Shown here one piece after another: positions 1,710 to 9,014 of a DNA stretch of 64,000 nt. The notes beneath the pieces were generated by a model. It saw only the letters and a program-made list of their open reading frames with translations. It did no database searches and was not told where the DNA came from. A program made the position numbers and the translations under genes. Position 1 is the stretch's first letter; each line of letters opens with the position of its first letter. The stretch spans positions 1,990,326 through 2,054,325 of the forward strand of contig NZ_RDBN01000037.1 in the NCBI RefSeq assembly GCF_008042075.1, in the 5' to 3' direction. Source of the DNA: Streptomyces sp. UW30. GTDB taxonomy: Bacteria > Actinomycetota > Actinomycetes > Streptomycetales > Streptomycetaceae.

Positions 1710-3194
1710 GTGTTCCTGACCATCACCACCACCGGCACCCCGGAGCGTCCGGCCTCCGATCTCGGCTTCCTGCTGCACAAGCATCCCGAGAAGGCCCAGA
1801 TGTTCTCCACCTCCTACGGCACGGCACACGTCCTCTACCCCCAAGCGGACGCCGAGCGCTGCACGGCGGCGCTGCTACTGGAGGTCGACGCGGTGGCGTT
1901 GGTCAGGCGCGGCAAGGGCAAGGGCCGGGGCGGCGCACCCGACGCGGCCCTCGCGCAGTACGTCAACGACCGCCCGTACGCCGCCTCCTCGCTGCTCGCG
2001 GTCGCGCTCAGCGCCGTGTTCTCCAGCGCGATGCGCGGCGTGTGCAAGGCCCGGCCGGAGCTTGCCGCCCAGCCGCTGCCGCTGCGCATCGAGGTGCCCG
2101 CGCTGCCGGCCCGAGGCGGCCCGGCGCTCGTACGGCGGCTGTTCGAGCCGCTCGGCTGGGCGGTGACCGCCGAACCCGTGCCGCTGGACGTGCAGTTCCC
2201 CGAGTGGGGCGACTCGCGCTACGTCGGTCTCGTCCTGGAGTCGCAGGCGCTGACCCTCGCCGAGGCCCTGCGCCACCTCTACGTCCTGCTCCCCGTCCTC
2301 GACGACGCCAAGCACTACTGGGTCTCGCCCGACGAGGTCGACAAGCTGCTGCGGGCCGGTGAGGGCTGGCTGCCGGGTCACCCGGAGCAGAAGGTGATCA
2401 CCAGCCGGTACCTCTCGCGCCGTTGGTCGCTGACCCGCGAGGCGATGGAGCGGCTGGAGCTCGTGCGGCTCGCGGAGGCCGACGACAGCGAGGTCGAGGA
2501 CATCGACAACGCGGTCGAGGCGGAGACCGAGGACGAGGAGAGGCCGACCCCGCTCGCCGTGCAGCGCCGGGACGCGATCCTGGCCGCGCTCAAGGCGTCC
2601 GGCGCCGGGCGCGTGCTCGACCTCGGATGCGGGCAGGGCCAGTTGGTGCAGGCTCTCCTCAAGGACCCGGCGTTCACCGAGATCGTGGGCGTGGATGTGT
2701 CGATGCGGGCGCTGACCATCGCCGGGCGGCGGCTGAAGCTGGACCGGATGGGGGAGCGGCAGGCCTCGCGCGTAAAGCTCTTCCAGGGCTCCCTCGCCTA
2801 CACCGACACCCGGCTGAAGGGCTACGACGCCGCTGTGCTCAGCGAGGTCATCGAGCACCTCGACCTGCCGCGGCTGCCCGCCCTGGAGTACGCGGTGTTC
2901 GGCTCCGCCCGCCCGAGGACCGTCCTCGTGACGACCCCGAACGTCGAGTACAACGTCCGCTGGGAGTCCCTCCCGGCCGGGCACGTCCGGCACGGCGACC
3001 ACCGCTTCGAGTGGACCCGCGAGGAGTTCCGCACCTGGCCGCGGGCGGTCGCCGAACGGCACGGGTACGGCGTGGAGTTCGTGCCCGTGGGCCCCGACGA
3101 CCCCGAGGTGGGGCCGCCGACGCAGATGGCCGTTTTCGAGATGGGCACAGCCGTGGGACACGGCAACGACGAGAAGGAGGCGAAGGCCGCATGA
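1710..3194 (+). CDS. hen1: 3'-terminal RNA ribose 2'-O-methyltransferase Hen1
   Basis: A 494-residue bacterial Hen1. With Pnkp it repairs tRNAs cut by ribotoxins, adding a 2'-O-methyl at the 3' end of the break before ligation so that the repaired site resists another cut. The N-terminal half (about 1-220) is the bacterial Hen1 domain that supports Pnkp ligation. The C-terminal half is the methyltransferase, with the SAM site LDLGCGQGQLVQALL near residue 300 and the metal-site segment SEVIEHLDLPRL near 378. GTG 1710 is chosen because the conserved start (FLTITTTGTPERPASDLGFL) follows it; a TTG at 1623 is in frame but gives an unrelated extension. The acidic linker around 265-285 is variable in the family. 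Its stop overlaps the pnkp start (ATGA), so the two are translationally coupled. Confidence 0.93.
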   Translation: MFLTITTTGTPERPASDLGFLLHKHPEKAQMFSTSYGTAHVLYPQADAERCTAALLLEVDAVALVRRGKGKGRGGAPDAALAQYVNDRPYAASSLLAVALSAVFSSAMRGVCKARPELAAQPLPLRIEVPALPARGGPALVRRLFEPLGWAVTAEPVPLDVQFPEWGDSRYVGLVLESQALTLAEALRHLYVLLPVLDDAKHYWVSPDEVDKLLRAGEGWLPGHPEQKVITSRYLSRRWSLTREAMERLELVRLAEADDSEVEDIDNAVEAETEDEERPTPLAVQRRDAILAALKASGAGRVLDLGCGQGQLVQALLKDPAFTEIVGVDVSMRALTIAGRRLKLDRMGERQASRVKLFQGSLAYTDTRLKGYDAAVLSEVIEHLDLPRLPALEYAVFGSARPRTVLVTTPNVEYNVRWESLPAGHVRHGDHRFEWTREEFRTWPRAVAERHGYGVEFVPVGPDDPEVGPPTQMAVFEMGTAVGHGNDEKEAKAA

Positions 3195-5731
3195 ACAAGG
3201 CAGCGAACGGGCGTGTCCTGCCCGTCACCGACCTCTCCCTCGTCGTCCTCGTCGGCGCCTCCGGCTCCGGCAAGTCCACCTTCGCCCGCCGGAACTTCAA
3301 GCCGACCGAGGTGATCTCCTCCGACTTCTGCCGCGGCCTGGTCTCCGACGACGAGAACGACCAGAGCGCCACCCGGGACGCCTTCGACGTCCTGCACTAC
3401 ATCGCGGGCAAGCGTCTGGCCGCCGGCCGCCGCACGGTCGTCGACGCGACCAGCGTGCAGCAGGACTCCCGCCGCCAGCTGATCGAGCTCGCGAGGCAGT
3501 ATGACGTGCTGCCCATCGCCATCGTGCTCGATGTGCCGGAGGAGGTGTGCGCCGAGCGCAACGCGGCCCGCACCGACCGGGCCGACATGCCGCGCCGGGT
3601 GATCCAGCGGCACATCCGCGAACTGCGCCGGTCGATACGGCACCTGGAGCGCGAGGGCTTCCGCAAGGTGCACGTCCTGCGCGGTGTGGAGGACGTCGAG
3701 AACGCCTCCGTCGTCACCGAGAAGCGCTTCAACGACCTCACCCACCTCACCGGCCCCTTCGACATCGTCGGCGACATCCACGGCTGCGCCTCCGAACTGG
3801 AGTCGCTGCTGGGCAAGTTGGGCTACGTCGACGGCGTGCACCCGGACGGCCGCAGCGCCGTCTTCGTCGGCGACCTCGTCGACCGCGGCCCCGACAGCCC
3901 GGGTGTGCTGCGCCGCGTGATGTCGATGGTCAAGTCGGGCAACGCGCTGTGCGTGCCCGGCAACCACGAGAACAAGTACGGCCGCTACCTCAAGGGCCGC
4001 AAGGTCCAGCACACCCACGGACTCGCCGAGACCATCGAGCAGATGGAGGGCGAGAGCGAGGAGTTCCGCGCGGAGGTACGGGAGTTCATCGACGGGCTCG
4101 TCAGCCACTACGTCCTCGACGGCGGCAAGCTGGTCGTCTGCCACGCCGGTCTGCCGGAGAAATACCACGGCCGCACGTCGGGGCGGGTGCGCTCGCACGC
4201 GCTGTACGGCGACACCACCGGGGAGACCGACGAGTTCGGACTGCCGGTGCGCTACCCGTGGGCGGAGGACTACCGAGGCCGGGCGGCTGTGGTGTACGGC
4301 CACACTCCGGTCCCGGAGGCCACATGGCTCAACAACACCATCTGCCTGGACACCGGCGCCGTCTTCGGCGGCAAGATGACCGCGCTGCGCTGGCCGGAGC
4401 GGGAGCTGGTCGACGTACCGGCGGAGCAGGTCTGGTACGAGCCGACGAAGCCGCTGCGGACCGAGGCGCCCGGCGGGCACGACGGGCGGCCGCTCGACCT
4501 GGGCGACGTGCAGGGGCGCAGGATCGTCGAGACCCGGTACTCGGGCCGTGTCTCGATCCGTGAGGAGAACGCGGCCGCGGCCCTGGAGGTCATGAGCCGC
4601 TTCGCCGTCGACCCGCGCCTGCTGCCGTACCTCCCGCCGACCATGGCGCCGACGGCGACCAGTCAGGTCGAGGGCTACCTCGAACACCCGGCGGAGGCCT
4701 TCGCGCAGTTCGCGCAGGACGGCGTCGAGCGGGTCGTGTGCGAGGAGAAGCACATGGGCTCGCGGGCCGTGGCGCTGGTGTGCCGGGACGCGGAGGCGGC
4801 GCGTAAGCGGTTCGGGGTGGACGGGCCGACGGGATCCATCTACACCCGTACCGGACGCCCGTTCTTCGACGACGAGTCGGTGACGGAGACGATCATCGAC
4901 CGGGTCCGCGCGGCGGTCGACGAGGCCGGGCTCTGGGACGAGCTGGAGACGGACTGGCTGCTGCTCGACGCCGAGTTGATGCCGTGGTCGCTGAAGGCGT
5001 CGGGCCTGCTGCGCTCGCAGTACGCGGCGGTCGGCGCCGCCTCCGGGGCGGTGTTCCCCGGTGCCCTGTCCGCGCTGGAAGGCGCCGCGGCGCGCGGCGT
5101 CGACGTCACCGACCTGCTGGCGCGTCAGCGCGAACGGGCCTCGGACGCCGCCGCGTTCACGGAGGCGTACCGCCGCTACTGCTGGACGACGGACGGTCTG
5201 GACGGCGTACGTCTGGCGCCGTTCCAGATCCTGGCCGTCCAGGGCCGCAGCCTCGCCGCTCTCCCGCACGACCAGCAGCTCGCACAGCTCGACCGGCTGG
5301 TGGAGCACGACGGCAGCGGCCTGCTCCAGACCACCCGGCGCCTGTACGTCGACACCGGCGACCCGGAGTCGGTGCGGGCCGGCGTCGACTGGTGGCTGGA
5401 GATGACGGGCCGCGGCGGCGAGGGCATGGTCGTCAAGCCGCTGGGTGCGGTGGTGCGAAGCGCGGAGGGCCGCCTGGTGCAGCCCGGTATCAAGTGCCGG
5501 GGTCGCGAGTACCTGCGGATCATCTACGGTCCCGAGTACACGCGCTCCGACAACCTGGCCCGGCTGCGGCAGCGGTTCCTCAACCACAAGCGGTCCCTCG
5601 CGATCCGTGAGTACGCGCTGGGCCTCGAGGCCCTGGACCGGCTGGCGGAGGGCGAGCCGCTGTGGCGGGTGCACGAGGCGGTGTTCGGGGTGCTGGCGCT
5701 GGAGTCGGAGCCGGTGGACCCCCGGCTGTGA
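3191..5731 (+). CDS. pnkp: Polynucleotide kinase-phosphatase with ligase domain
   Basis: An 846-residue Pnkp, the end-healing and ligation partner of Hen1 in bacterial RNA repair. Order: 5'-kinase domain with P-loop GASGSGKST near residue 22; calcineurin-type phosphatase domain with GDIHGC near 194, GDLVDRGPDS and GNHE; then an adenylyltransferase/ligase domain with the nucleotidyl-transfer lysine in EEKHMGSRAV near 519 and a distal motif GMVVKP. All three active sites look intact, and the length matches the family (about 830-870). AAGGAGG precedes the ATG, which overlaps the hen1 stop. It ends three bases before the convergent NAD-kinase-like gene, with no room for a terminator between them. 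Confidence 0.95.
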   Translation: MNKAANGRVLPVTDLSLVVLVGASGSGKSTFARRNFKPTEVISSDFCRGLVSDDENDQSATRDAFDVLHYIAGKRLAAGRRTVVDATSVQQDSRRQLIELARQYDVLPIAIVLDVPEEVCAERNAARTDRADMPRRVIQRHIRELRRSIRHLEREGFRKVHVLRGVEDVENASVVTEKRFNDLTHLTGPFDIVGDIHGCASELESLLGKLGYVDGVHPDGRSAVFVGDLVDRGPDSPGVLRRVMSMVKSGNALCVPGNHENKYGRYLKGRKVQHTHGLAETIEQMEGESEEFRAEVREFIDGLVSHYVLDGGKLVVCHAGLPEKYHGRTSGRVRSHALYGDTTGETDEFGLPVRYPWAEDYRGRAAVVYGHTPVPEATWLNNTICLDTGAVFGGKMTALRWPERELVDVPAEQVWYEPTKPLRTEAPGGHDGRPLDLGDVQGRRIVETRYSGRVSIREENAAAALEVMSRFAVDPRLLPYLPPTMAPTATSQVEGYLEHPAEAFAQFAQDGVERVVCEEKHMGSRAVALVCRDAEAARKRFGVDGPTGSIYTRTGRPFFDDESVTETIIDRVRAAVDEAGLWDELETDWLLLDAELMPWSLKASGLLRSQYAAVGAASGAVFPGALSALEGAAARGVDVTDLLARQRERASDAAAFTEAYRRYCWTTDGLDGVRLAPFQILAVQGRSLAALPHDQQLAQLDRLVEHDGSGLLQTTRRLYVDTGDPESVRAGVDWWLEMTGRGGEGMVVKPLGAVVRSAEGRLVQPGIKCRGREYLRIIYGPEYTRSDNLARLRQRFLNHKRSLAIREYALGLEALDRLAEGEPLWRVHEAVFGVLALESEPVDPRL

Positions 5732-5734
5732 CGG

Positions 5735-6634
5735 TCAGTTGACGAGCAGCAGACGGTCCCGGCACACACCCACCCGGACCGTCTGCCCCCACGTCAGCTC
5801 GACCGCGTCCGTCTCCATCCCGTCCCCGAACGCCACGAGCCGCTCGGACTCGACGGTGAGGCGCAGGCGGGTCGCCGCGGCGAGTTCCCCGGCCACCAGT
5901 GACGTACCGGTGGCCGGGGACGGCCAGGCCTCGCGCACGAACCACAGGAGCCGTTCCTCGGTGGGGGAGGGCAACCGCAGTCGCTCTCCCCGCTCCTGCC
6001 ACACCGACCGGATCCAGCCGGTCGCCCCCGTCCCGGTTCCGACGATCACCCCGGACGAAGCCTGGGCCTCGACGACACCCCCGTCGTCCTCCAGGCCCAG
6101 GCGGTATCGGGCCGTCCTGTGTCCGGCGGCGCCCAGGTAGATCTCGTTCAGCGCGACGAGGCGCTGTGTGTCGTCGGCGACGGCCTCGACCATGGTGAGT
6201 TCGTCGAAGTCGCCCCTTGCGGATTGCGTGGACGCGAACAACCTCGCCGCGTCCGCGGGACGGTGGCGCACCAGGACGCCCGGGTTGCGGCCGGGGTCGG
6301 TGTCGATGCCCAGCACCGGCTGCCCGGCCAGGTACTTGGCCACGTTCGCGACCAGCCCGTCCTGCCCGACCACGACCACCACGTCCTCCGGTCCGAACAG
6401 GAACCGGTCCAGGTCGGCTCGCTCCACCCGGGTCTGACGCCAGGTCAGGGGAATCGCGGAGGTCACCTCCGTCAGCGCCTGTCGCGTACGGCGATGGCGT
6501 TCGGCGACCTCCTCGATGTCCCGGCCCCGGGAGGACAGGAAGAAGGCGGCCTGGCCGTGCGTGCCGTGCCGGGCCACCAACTCCTCGTACTCCGAGGTGC
6601 GATGGACGAGGACGACCCGCGGGGCGAGGCTCAC
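5735..6634 (-). CDS. NAD kinase-like protein with altered GGDG motif
   Basis: A 299-residue member of the ATP-NAD kinase fold. The usual GGDGT loop reads VVVVVGQDGLVANVA (near residue 90): the key Asp is kept but one Gly is Gln and the following Thr is Leu. The later motifs are also modified: LNEIYLG for the usual NE motif, and SGVIVGTGTGATGW for the TPTGSTAY-type loop. It may phosphorylate NAD, or bind NAD or a related molecule without being a standard NAD kinase. The GTG start overlaps the stop of the SPFH gene by four bases (GTGA, 6631-6634), so the two are one operon and probably work together. A housekeeping NAD kinase is expected elsewhere in the genome. Confidence 0.75.
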   Translation of the reverse strand: MSLAPRVVLVHRTSEYEELVARHGTHGQAAFFLSSRGRDIEEVAERHRRTRQALTEVTSAIPLTWRQTRVERADLDRFLFGPEDVVVVVGQDGLVANVAKYLAGQPVLGIDTDPGRNPGVLVRHRPADAARLFASTQSARGDFDELTMVEAVADDTQRLVALNEIYLGAAGHRTARYRLGLEDDGGVVEAQASSGVIVGTGTGATGWIRSVWQERGERLRLPSPTEERLLWFVREAWPSPATGTSLVAGELAAATRLRLTVESERLVAFGDGMETDAVELTWGQTVRVGVCRDRLLLVN

Positions 6635-7668
6635 GCCTGCTCCTGATGGCCCAGCTTGGCGAGCAGGCCCGTCAGCACATCCGGGGACACCGTCAGGCTG
6701 TCGATCCGCGGCAGGTTCTCCGCCAGCCGGGTCCCGGTCAGGGCGTGCAGCGTCGCCACGTCCACATCGGCGTGCACCCGCAGCCAGGCCGCCTGGGCCT
6801 GCGCCCGCGCCTCGCCGACCTCACGCGCCCCCTCGGCCTCCGCCCGGGCCAGCCGTACGGACCGGGTGGCCTCCGCCTCCGCGAGGCGTACCGTCCGTGC
6901 CGCCTCCGCCTCGGCCCTGACCGCGTCCGCGGCGGCGTGCTCCTCGGCCTCCCGGCGCGCGTTCGTGCCGCGCTGGTCCACCAACTGCTCCTCGCGGCGG
7001 GCGAGTTCGATCTGGCTGGCCAGTTCGTTCTCGGCGATGGCCCGCTCCCGCTCGACGGCCACCGCCCGCCGCTCGTACGTCGCCCGGTCGGCCTCCTGCT
7101 GGATCTGCTCCCGGGCCGGGGTACGCAGGGCCCGCTCCACCTCCGGTTCCGGGCGCAGCGCCATGACGCGTACGGCGACCACCTCGATGCCGGTCGCGGG
7201 AAGTCTGGGCTCCCCGGCCAGGCCCTGCGCGATCCGCTCCCGCACCGCCGTCACGCCGTCCACCAGGGCCGCCGACAGCGGCGTACGGGACAGGACGTCC
7301 AGCGCGTGCTGCTGCGCCGTCTCGGTGAGCAGGGTGCCGAGCTGCTCCAAGGGCGCGGCGCGCCAGGCCCCCGAGTCCGGGTCGATCGAGAAGTCCAGGC
7401 GTGCGGCGGCCACGGCCGGGTCGCTGATCCGGTAGGTGACCGTCGCCTGGACGGCCACGTCCTGGAAGTCGGACGTACGGGCGTGGAAGGTCATCGCCAG
7501 TTCCCGGTCGTCGACCGGGACTTCGGAGATCGCGGCGGTCAGGGCCCGGAACCAGAAGCTGAGCCCGGGGCCGTCGTGCAGCAGCTTCGTGCCGCGGTGG
7601 TGGCGGATGTGCGCCGTGGGCGCGCCGCGCAGATGGCGCCAGCCCAGGCGCCGGGTGATGTCGGCCAT
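6631..7668 (-). CDS. SPFH/Band 7 domain protein
   Basis: A 345-residue stomatin/prohibitin-like protein. The SPFH domain covers about residues 15-180 ([40 protein letters not shown]). A long Ala/Glu/Arg-rich coiled coil follows at about 190-295. I see no N-terminal membrane segment, unlike many relatives, so membrane contact would need another partner. ATG 7668 is chosen because a GAGGGGGG site precedes it; an in-frame start at 7725 would run through the operator region. It is first in an operon with the NAD-kinase-like gene and divergent from the arginine deiminase gene. SPFH proteins build oligomeric membrane microdomains; the role here is unknown. Confidence 0.82.
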
Positions 7669-7682
7669 GGAGCCCCCCTCTT

Positions 7683-7736
7683 TTTCGTCATGTGGACGAT
7701 AATCGTCCGGCCTGCTTGTCGTCAAGGGGACGAAAA
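7683..7736. promoter_or_regulatory. Operator cluster between the SPFH operon and arcA
   Basis: The divergent control region holds two copies of the dyad TCGTC-N5-GACGA, at 7686-7700 and 7719-7733, with the pattern TCGTCAnGnGGACGA. A palindrome GGACGAT-A-ATCGTCC (7694-7708) overlaps the first. The base pattern suits a dimeric repressor such as a TetR or MarR type binding at several sites. It lies upstream of both gene sets, so one regulator may control both. No candidate regulator gene is adjacent. Confidence 0.6.
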
Positions 7737-7790
7737 GAAGATGGTGGCAAGCAGGGGGTGAACAGGCCCCTCGATGGTCAGGATGGAGGC

Positions 7791-9014
7791 ATGGGATTCC
7801 ACGTCGACTCCGAGGCCGGGCGGCTGCGCCGCGTCATCCTGCACCGGCCGGATCTGGAGCTCAAAAGGCTCACCCCGGGCAACAAGGACGCTCTGCTCTT
7901 CGACGATGTGCTGTGGGTGCGCCGGGCGCGCGCCGAGCACGACGGGTTCGCCGACGTGCTGCGCGACCGCGGGGTCACCGTCCACCTCTTCGGCGACCTG
8001 CTCACCGAGTCCCTGGGGGTCCCGGCAGCCCGCAGGCTCGTCCTGGACCGGGTCTTCGACGAGAAGGAGTACGGGGTGCTCGCCACCGACCACCTCCGCG
8101 CGGCCTTCGAAAGCCTGCCGGCGCCCGAGCTGGCCGAGGCCCTGGTCGGCGGCATGACCAAGCGGGAGTTCCTGGAGGCGCACCCCGAGCCGACCTCCGT
8201 GCGCTTCCACGTCATGGAGCTGGACGACTTTCTCCTCGCGCCCCTGCCCAACCACCTCTTCACCCGGGACACCTCGGCCTGGATCTACGACGGCGTCTCC
8301 GTCAACGCCATGCGCTGGCCGGCCCGCCAGCGCGAGACGGTCCACTTCGAGGCGATCTACCGGCACCACCCCCTCTTCCGTGACGAAACGTTCCACGTCT
8401 GGTCCGAGGGGCAGGCCGACTACCCCTCCACCATTGAGGGCGGGGACGTCCTGGTGATCGGCAACGGCGCGGTTCTGATCGGCATGAGCGAGCGGACCAC
8501 CCCCCAGGCCGTCGAGATGCTCGCCCACAAGCTGTTCGCCGCCGGATCGGCTGAGACGATCGTGGCCCTCGACATGCCCAAGCGGCGTGCGCTGATGCAC
8601 CTCGACACCGTGATGACGATGGTCGACGGCGATGTCTTCACCCAGTACGCCGGGCTCGGCATGCTCCGCTCGTACACCATCGAACCGGGCGTCGGCGACA
8701 AGGAGCTCAAGGTCACCGACCATCCGCCGGAGCACATGCACCGCGCGATCGCCGCCGCCCTCGGCCTGAGCGAGATCCGTGTCCTCACCGCCACCCAGGA
8801 CGTCCACTCGGCCCAGCGCGAGCAGTGGGACGACGGCTGCAATGTGCTGGCCGTCGAGCCGGGCGTCGTCGTCGCCTATGAACGCAACTCCACCACCAAC
8901 ACGCATCTGCGCAAACAGGGCATCGAGGTGATAGAGATCCCGGGCAGCGAGCTGGGGCGGGGGAGGGGCGGACCGCGGTGCATGAGCTGTCCGGTCGAGC
9001 GGGCGCCCGTATAG
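7791..9014 (+). CDS. arcA: Arginine deiminase
   Basis: A 407-residue arginine deiminase that turns arginine into citrulline and ammonia, the first step of the ADI pathway. Visible active-site segments are [46 protein letters not shown] and the nucleophilic Cys near residue 397 in [12 protein letters not shown]. The ATG at 7791 follows GGATGGAGGC. The next gene is a catabolic-type ornithine carbamoyltransferase, the second ADI enzyme. Neither carbamate kinase (arcC) nor an arginine/ornithine exchanger is visible in the window. Confidence 0.95.

What the first reader, a model, noticed from the sequence alone, without database searches (positions are those of the whole stretch)
5735..9014. SPFH protein coupled to an altered NAD-kinase-like protein, divergent from arginine deiminase
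An SPFH/stomatin gene and a NAD-kinase-fold gene overlap by four bases, so they are made together. The NAD-kinase motif GGDGT is changed to GQDGL and the other loops also differ. No pathway I know uses this pair. Together with a shared operator facing arcA it may be an undescribed unit, for example a membrane scaffold with a nucleotide enzyme or sensor.
Basis: partly seen in the sequence, partly recalled or inferred. Interest (0 to 1): 0.68.

Follow-up and report, generated by a model that had tools for sequence, protein, structure and literature searches.

The report
NrtR-controlled SPFH and NAD-kinase-like pair
Two overlapping genes, one for a ring-forming scaffold-type protein and one for an altered relative of the mitochondrial NAD kinase, form an inseparable unit found in several bacterial phyla and apparently switched on by a sensor of NAD breakdown, which points to an undescribed NAD-related function.

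Summary
An SPFH gene (6631-7668, minus) and a NAD-kinase-fold gene (5735-6634, minus) overlap by GTGA. In 120 related genomes, 50 carry both genes, none has the SPFH gene alone, and two have only a kinase match (one of them broken). The pair is always adjacent and co-oriented, and recurs in Pseudomonadota and Spirochaetota. GQDGL is a family signature (143 of 145 distinct motifs), not a local change; the closest solved fold is human NADK2 (Z 24.9). The arginine deiminase link is incidental: it occurs in 28 of 80 long loci.

The main new result is the control. In 122 of 126 pair promoters there is at least one TCGTC-N5-GACGA operator (exact or with one mismatch), in 97 two, about 34 bp apart, over -35 and -10. 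The same operator lies in front of an NrtR gene near hrdB, in 30 of 30 relatives. In distant genera an NrtR gene adjoins the pair. NrtR regulators sense ADP-ribose and NAD status.

Best reading: a soluble SPFH assembly plus an NADK2-related nucleotide enzyme or sensor, de-repressed when NAD is broken down. Control is well supported by sequence; chemistry is inferred. No membrane anchor was found.

The parts
6631..7668 (-). SPFH/Band 7 protein, 345 aa, no hydrophobic anchor, long C-terminal helix (residues 175-298)
5735..6634 (-). NADK2-related protein, 299 aa, with GQDGLVAN signature; catalytic Asp92, Asn163-Glu164 kept
6631..6634 (-). 4-base overlap of SPFH stop and kinase start (GTGA), conserved, suggests translational coupling
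7716..7736 (.). distal NrtR-type operator TTGTCGTCAAGGGGACGAAAA (core 7719-7733), over the -35 element
7682..7702 (.). proximal NrtR-type operator TTTTCGTCATGTGGACGATAA (core 7685-7699), over the -10 element
7696..7725 (-). predicted promoter of the pair: -35 TTGACG (7725-7720), 18-base spacer, -10 TATCGT (7701-7696)
   Evidence: read from sequence; TTGACG is part of the conserved distal operator

Best explanation
The pair is a two-protein NAD/ADP-ribose stress module. In its resting state NrtR1, a Nudix-type repressor encoded near hrdB, sits on two operators that cover the -35 and -10 of the pair's promoter and on one operator over its own -10. When NAD is consumed and ADP-ribose rises, NrtR1 lets go and the two overlapping genes are made together. 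The SPFH protein assembles into a soluble ring or cage through its SPFH domain and long helix. The NADK2-related protein, bound to that assembly, uses a NAD-type binding site (Asp92, Asn163, Glu164, the SSG..GTGTGATGW loop) to act on NAD or an NAD-derived adenosine diphosphate, either phosphorylating its ribose or sensing it. The fixed Gln in GQDGL probably changes the phosphate-donor side. Shown by sequence: the obligate pair, the coupling, the operators and their sharing with NrtR genes. Inferred: repressor identity and its ADP-ribose response here, protein-protein contact, substrate, and whether catalysis occurs at all.
For: 50 of 120 relatives have both genes, 0 SPFH alone, 2 kinase match only, always adjacent and co-oriented. 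Both are lost together: G003 keeps only SPFH remnants plus an operator, G007 has one deletion across both. Operators in 122 of 126 promoters at up to 1 mismatch versus 0.65% of shuffles; two in 97, spacing 33-34 in 93. In this genome the 18-base form marks only the pair promoter, NrtR1 and two other places; it is in front of NrtR1 in 30 of 30 loci. NrtR genes adjoin the pair in L044 and L152-L155 and in Rhizobium, Methylomonas, Providencia and Acinetobacter; NCBIfam's best match for two of these is the ADPR-responsive repressor, 223-267 bits, below its 400-bit cut-off. ADP-ribose releases NrtR from DNA in M. smegmatis (PMC6800001). Fold: NADK2 Z 24.9. A separate NAD_kinase gene above the cut-off exists in the genome, so this is unlikely to be the housekeeping enzyme.
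Against: No binding, activity or interaction data exist. NrtR1 matches occur in 71 of 73 Streptomyces genomes, the pair in about half, so NrtR1 has a role without it. Some NrtR-type regulators respond to sugars (AraR, PMC4666351), so the signal need not be ADP-ribose. GQDG breaks the GGDG motif said to be in all NAD kinases (PMC8553519).
Confidence: 0.55

Rival explanations
1. The kinase-like protein is a pseudoenzyme: it binds NAD, NADP or ADP-ribose and reports it to the SPFH assembly, without phosphoryl transfer.
For: The second Gly of GGDG is Gln in 143 of 145 distinct motifs and Pro in two, never Gly, while the substrate-side residues (Asp, Asn-Glu/Asp) are kept.
Against: The catalytic Asp is invariant; a pure sensor would not need to keep it so strictly. 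Changes at the last motif position (N, S, M, L) are tolerated in NAD kinases (PMC8553519).
Confidence: 0.3
2. It is an ordinary extra NAD kinase (NADK2 type) that raises NADP supply on demand; the SPFH protein is a loose partner.
For: Closest sequence and fold is human NADK2, an active NAD kinase; NrtR control fits NAD metabolism.
Against: Score far below every NAD kinase family cut-off, no Pfam match at all in distant members, altered GGDG, and complete linkage to an SPFH gene.
Confidence: 0.15
3. The pair is an arginine-deiminase accessory: it serves arginine fermentation or hypoxia and shares regulation with arcA.
For: Divergent from arcA with a common intergenic region in the window and in 28 of 80 long loci.
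Against: 52 of 80 long loci lack arcA, OTC and PNKP nearby while the pair and its operators stay; NrtR, not an arginine regulator, is the recurrent neighbour.
Confidence: 0.05
4. It is an anti-phage or anti-toxin defence module acting on NAD.
For: Patchy presence in a genus, joint loss, occurrence on plasmids; a RES NAD+ phosphorylase lies 3 kb away in Rhizobium.
Against: No PADLOC match; none in phage records or viral contigs; no recurrent defence-type neighbour seen; tight metabolic repressor control.
Confidence: 0.12

Closest known systems
NADK2 (human mitochondrial NAD kinase, C5orf33)
   Same: Best sequence and structure match; shares ALNE, SSG..TGTG..W and the PVIG(V/I)(N/D)TDP loop
   Different: GQDGL in place of GGDGT; about 20% identity; bacterial; tied to an SPFH protein
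SPFH/Band 7 proteins (stomatin, HflK/C, Erlin, flotillin, prohibitin; also the vault protein shoulder)
   Same: SPFH domain followed by a long helix; Foldseek matches to all of these
   Different: No N-terminal hydrophobic anchor; partner is a nucleotide-kinase-fold protein, not a protease or NfeD protein
NrtR regulons (Nudix-related, ADP-ribose-responsive control of NAD metabolism)
   Same: Regulator family, autoregulation, palindromic operator over the promoter
   Different: Known targets are NAD synthesis and salvage genes; an SPFH plus kinase-fold pair is not reported in the papers I could search; operator differs from the mycobacterial one (GTTTTCGA-N7-TCGAAAAC, PMC6800001)

Membership tests
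NAD kinase (NADK/PpnK) | NAD kinase fold | tested here: met
   Model pLDDT 91; VIA-align Z 24.9 to 7r4l over 281 residues, rmsd 3.1
NAD kinase (NADK/PpnK) | GGDG motif | tested here: not met
   GQDGL 143, GPDGL 1, GPDGM 1 of 145 distinct motifs
NAD kinase (NADK/PpnK) | NE/D short motif | tested here: met
   NE in 128, ND in 6, 11 not located by the pattern; N163 invariant in A3
NAD kinase (NADK/PpnK) | Conserved region II (D..STPTGSTAY) | tested here: inconclusive
   Kept in the NADK2 form SSG..GTGTGATGW; Asp and Tyr of the PpnK form replaced by Ser and Trp
NAD kinase (NADK/PpnK) | Curated family score | tested here: not met
   16.7 of 25.5 bits in Pfam; 30.5 of 316 in NCBIfam
NAD kinase (NADK/PpnK) | NAD phosphorylation | not testable with these tools
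   needs enzyme assay
SPFH/Band 7 | Band_7 domain above cut-off | tested here: met
   54.4 of 23.6 bits; Foldseek to HflK/C, Erlin, stomatin
SPFH/Band 7 membrane scaffold | N-terminal hydrophobic membrane segment | tested here: not met
   Highest 19-residue hydropathy 0.9-1.6 in 18 homologues
SPFH/Band 7 | Ring or cage oligomer | not testable with these tools
   only a monomer model
NrtR regulon member | Operator shared with an NrtR gene's own promoter | tested here: met
NrtR regulon member | NrtR gene adjacent in other taxa | tested here: met
NrtR regulon member | NrtR binding, released by ADP-ribose | not testable with these tools
   needs gel shift
Known anti-phage defence system | Match to a catalogued defence protein | tested here: not met
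   PADLOC-DB none

The most novel reading that the evidence does not exclude
A previously undescribed, multi-phylum NAD-surveillance machine: an ADP-ribose-triggered SPFH cage that holds a new class of nucleotide kinase or sensor (GQDG family) acting on NAD breakdown products rather than on NAD itself.
Probability: 0.3. Interest if true: 0.85.

Novelty: new variant of a known kind. Interest (0 to 1): 0.64.

Why it matters
It gives a testable function to a gene pair that public annotation calls 'SPFH domain-containing protein' plus 'sugar kinase' or 'hypothetical protein' in several phyla. It links SPFH assemblies, whose bacterial roles are mostly unclear, to NAD status through a defined repressor and operator, and it singles out a branch of the NAD kinase superfamily with a rewritten active-site motif.

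Tried and rejected
The palindrome GGACGATTATCGTCC in the window is not conserved; rejected as the operator. My first neighbour scan used out-of-frame queries for arcA and the RNA ligase; redone in frame with the same conclusion. arcA partnership rejected. Phage or virus origin: no matches. Defence: no PADLOC match. Literature: no held paper has SPFH, sugar kinase and Nudix together, or SPFH, NAD kinase and Streptomyces; the 2008 NrtR regulon paper is not held, so a listing of this pair there cannot be excluded. A search centred on Rhizobium genomes was not possible. In Rhizobium, Methylomonas and Treponema no GTC-N5-GAC operator was seen; in Providencia and Acinetobacter three each, but the palindrome test was not significant in Providencia.

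Full report
Observation. The window encodes an SPFH protein (6631-7668, minus) and a NAD-kinase-fold protein (5735-6634, minus) that overlap by GTGA. The SPFH protein passes Pfam Band_7; the second protein falls below the NAD_kinase cut-off and matches human NADK2 best among solved structures. arcA (7791-9014) and an ornithine carbamoyltransferase gene lie on the other side, divergent.

Conservation of the pair. In 120 related genomes 50 have both genes, none has this SPFH gene alone, and two have only a kinase match, one a fragment with a stop. All located pairs are adjacent; in 80 long loci all are co-oriented, and the 4-base overlap recurs in 136 of 167 loci. About half of the Streptomyces genomes have the pair. 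Losses take both genes: G007 has a deletion from inside SPFH into the kinase, and G003 has only SPFH remnants beside a surviving operator. Outside the genus it occurs in other actinobacterial families and, at 34-45% kinase identity, on replicons of Rhizobium, Roseomonas, Treponema, Methylomonas, Cupriavidus, Providencia and Acinetobacter. An SPFH gene is annotated directly upstream in the Rhizobium, Roseomonas, Treponema, Methylomonas and Providencia records; the Cupriavidus record is unannotated and none is listed in the incomplete Acinetobacter table.

arcA is a bystander. Of 80 loci over 15 kb, 28 have arcA and OTC nearby; 52 have neither.

Control. At least one TCGTC-N5-GACGA operator (up to one mismatch) occurs in 122 of 126 distinct pair promoters against 0.65% of shuffled ones; 97 have two, 33-34 bp apart in 93. 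They lie over a TTGACG -35 and a TATCGT -10. In this genome the pattern with its flank is found at both window sites, in front of an NrtR gene near hrdB, and at two other places. It precedes that NrtR gene in 30 of 30 relatives; in the seven Streptomyces genomes without the pair that were scanned it is present there in all, and in five it is the only site. In distant actinobacterial genera an NrtR gene is the direct neighbour of the pair, and again in Rhizobium, Methylomonas, Providencia and Acinetobacter. NrtR from M. smegmatis is released from DNA by ADP-ribose (PMC6800001). That this NrtR binds these operators and responds to ADP-ribose is inferred.

The kinase-like protein. Its model (pLDDT 91) matches NADK2 at Z 24.9. 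The Asp of the GGDG motif and the NE/D motif, both vital in M. tuberculosis PpnK (PMC8553519), are kept; region II has the NADK2 form. The second Gly of GGDG is Gln in 143 of 145 distinct motifs across phyla. So the substrate side looks NAD-like and the donor side looks changed. The genome has another NAD_kinase gene above the cut-off.

The SPFH protein. Its model shows an SPFH domain and a helix from 175 to 298, with matches to HflK/C, Erlin, stomatin, flotillin and the vault protein. No homologue tested has a hydrophobic segment of membrane-spanning strength. A soluble or peripherally bound assembly is more likely than a membrane-anchored one; this is inference.

Verdict. A real, conserved, NrtR-linked two-gene module, undescribed in the open papers I could search. 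The regulatory link is strong on sequence; the biochemical role is open between an altered kinase and a sensor.

Noticed in passing
window 3140-5731 (+): A polynucleotide kinase-phosphatase-ligase (PNKP_ligase, E 2.5e-176), an RNA-repair type enzyme, lies directly downstream of the kinase-like gene, convergent; kept with the arcA-type locus in 24 of 28 long loci.
   Followed up: partly
L169:4615-6380 (G000:C123): A second NrtR gene followed by an ADP-ribosylglycohydrolase gene; its upstream site reads TATAGTC-N5-GACTAT, same GTC-N5-GAC core with different flanks. Some pair promoters (e.g. L099, L106) carry AGTC-type sites.
   Followed up: partly
L231:5772-8304 (G074): A perfect TTATCGTC-N5-GACGATAA operator in front of a 368-aa protein with no Pfam match (VWA-like by eye) followed by an adenylosuccinate synthetase paralogue: a possible further NrtR target.
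   Followed up: partly
L237:10517-11074 (Rhizobium sp. Pop5): A RES family NAD+ phosphorylase gene about 3 kb from the pair.
   Followed up: no
L244:5980-6924 and L245:4980-5924: On Acinetobacter plasmid pALWED1.1 and on pHHV216 the kinase-like gene sits beside tetR(H)/tet(H); on pHHV216 a transposase gene ends about 0.6 kb upstream and no SPFH gene is annotated there.
   Followed up: no
L055:7192-7955 (G007) and L230:6221-6799 (G003): Decayed copies of the pair; the operator persists in G003 after loss of the kinase gene.
   Followed up: yes
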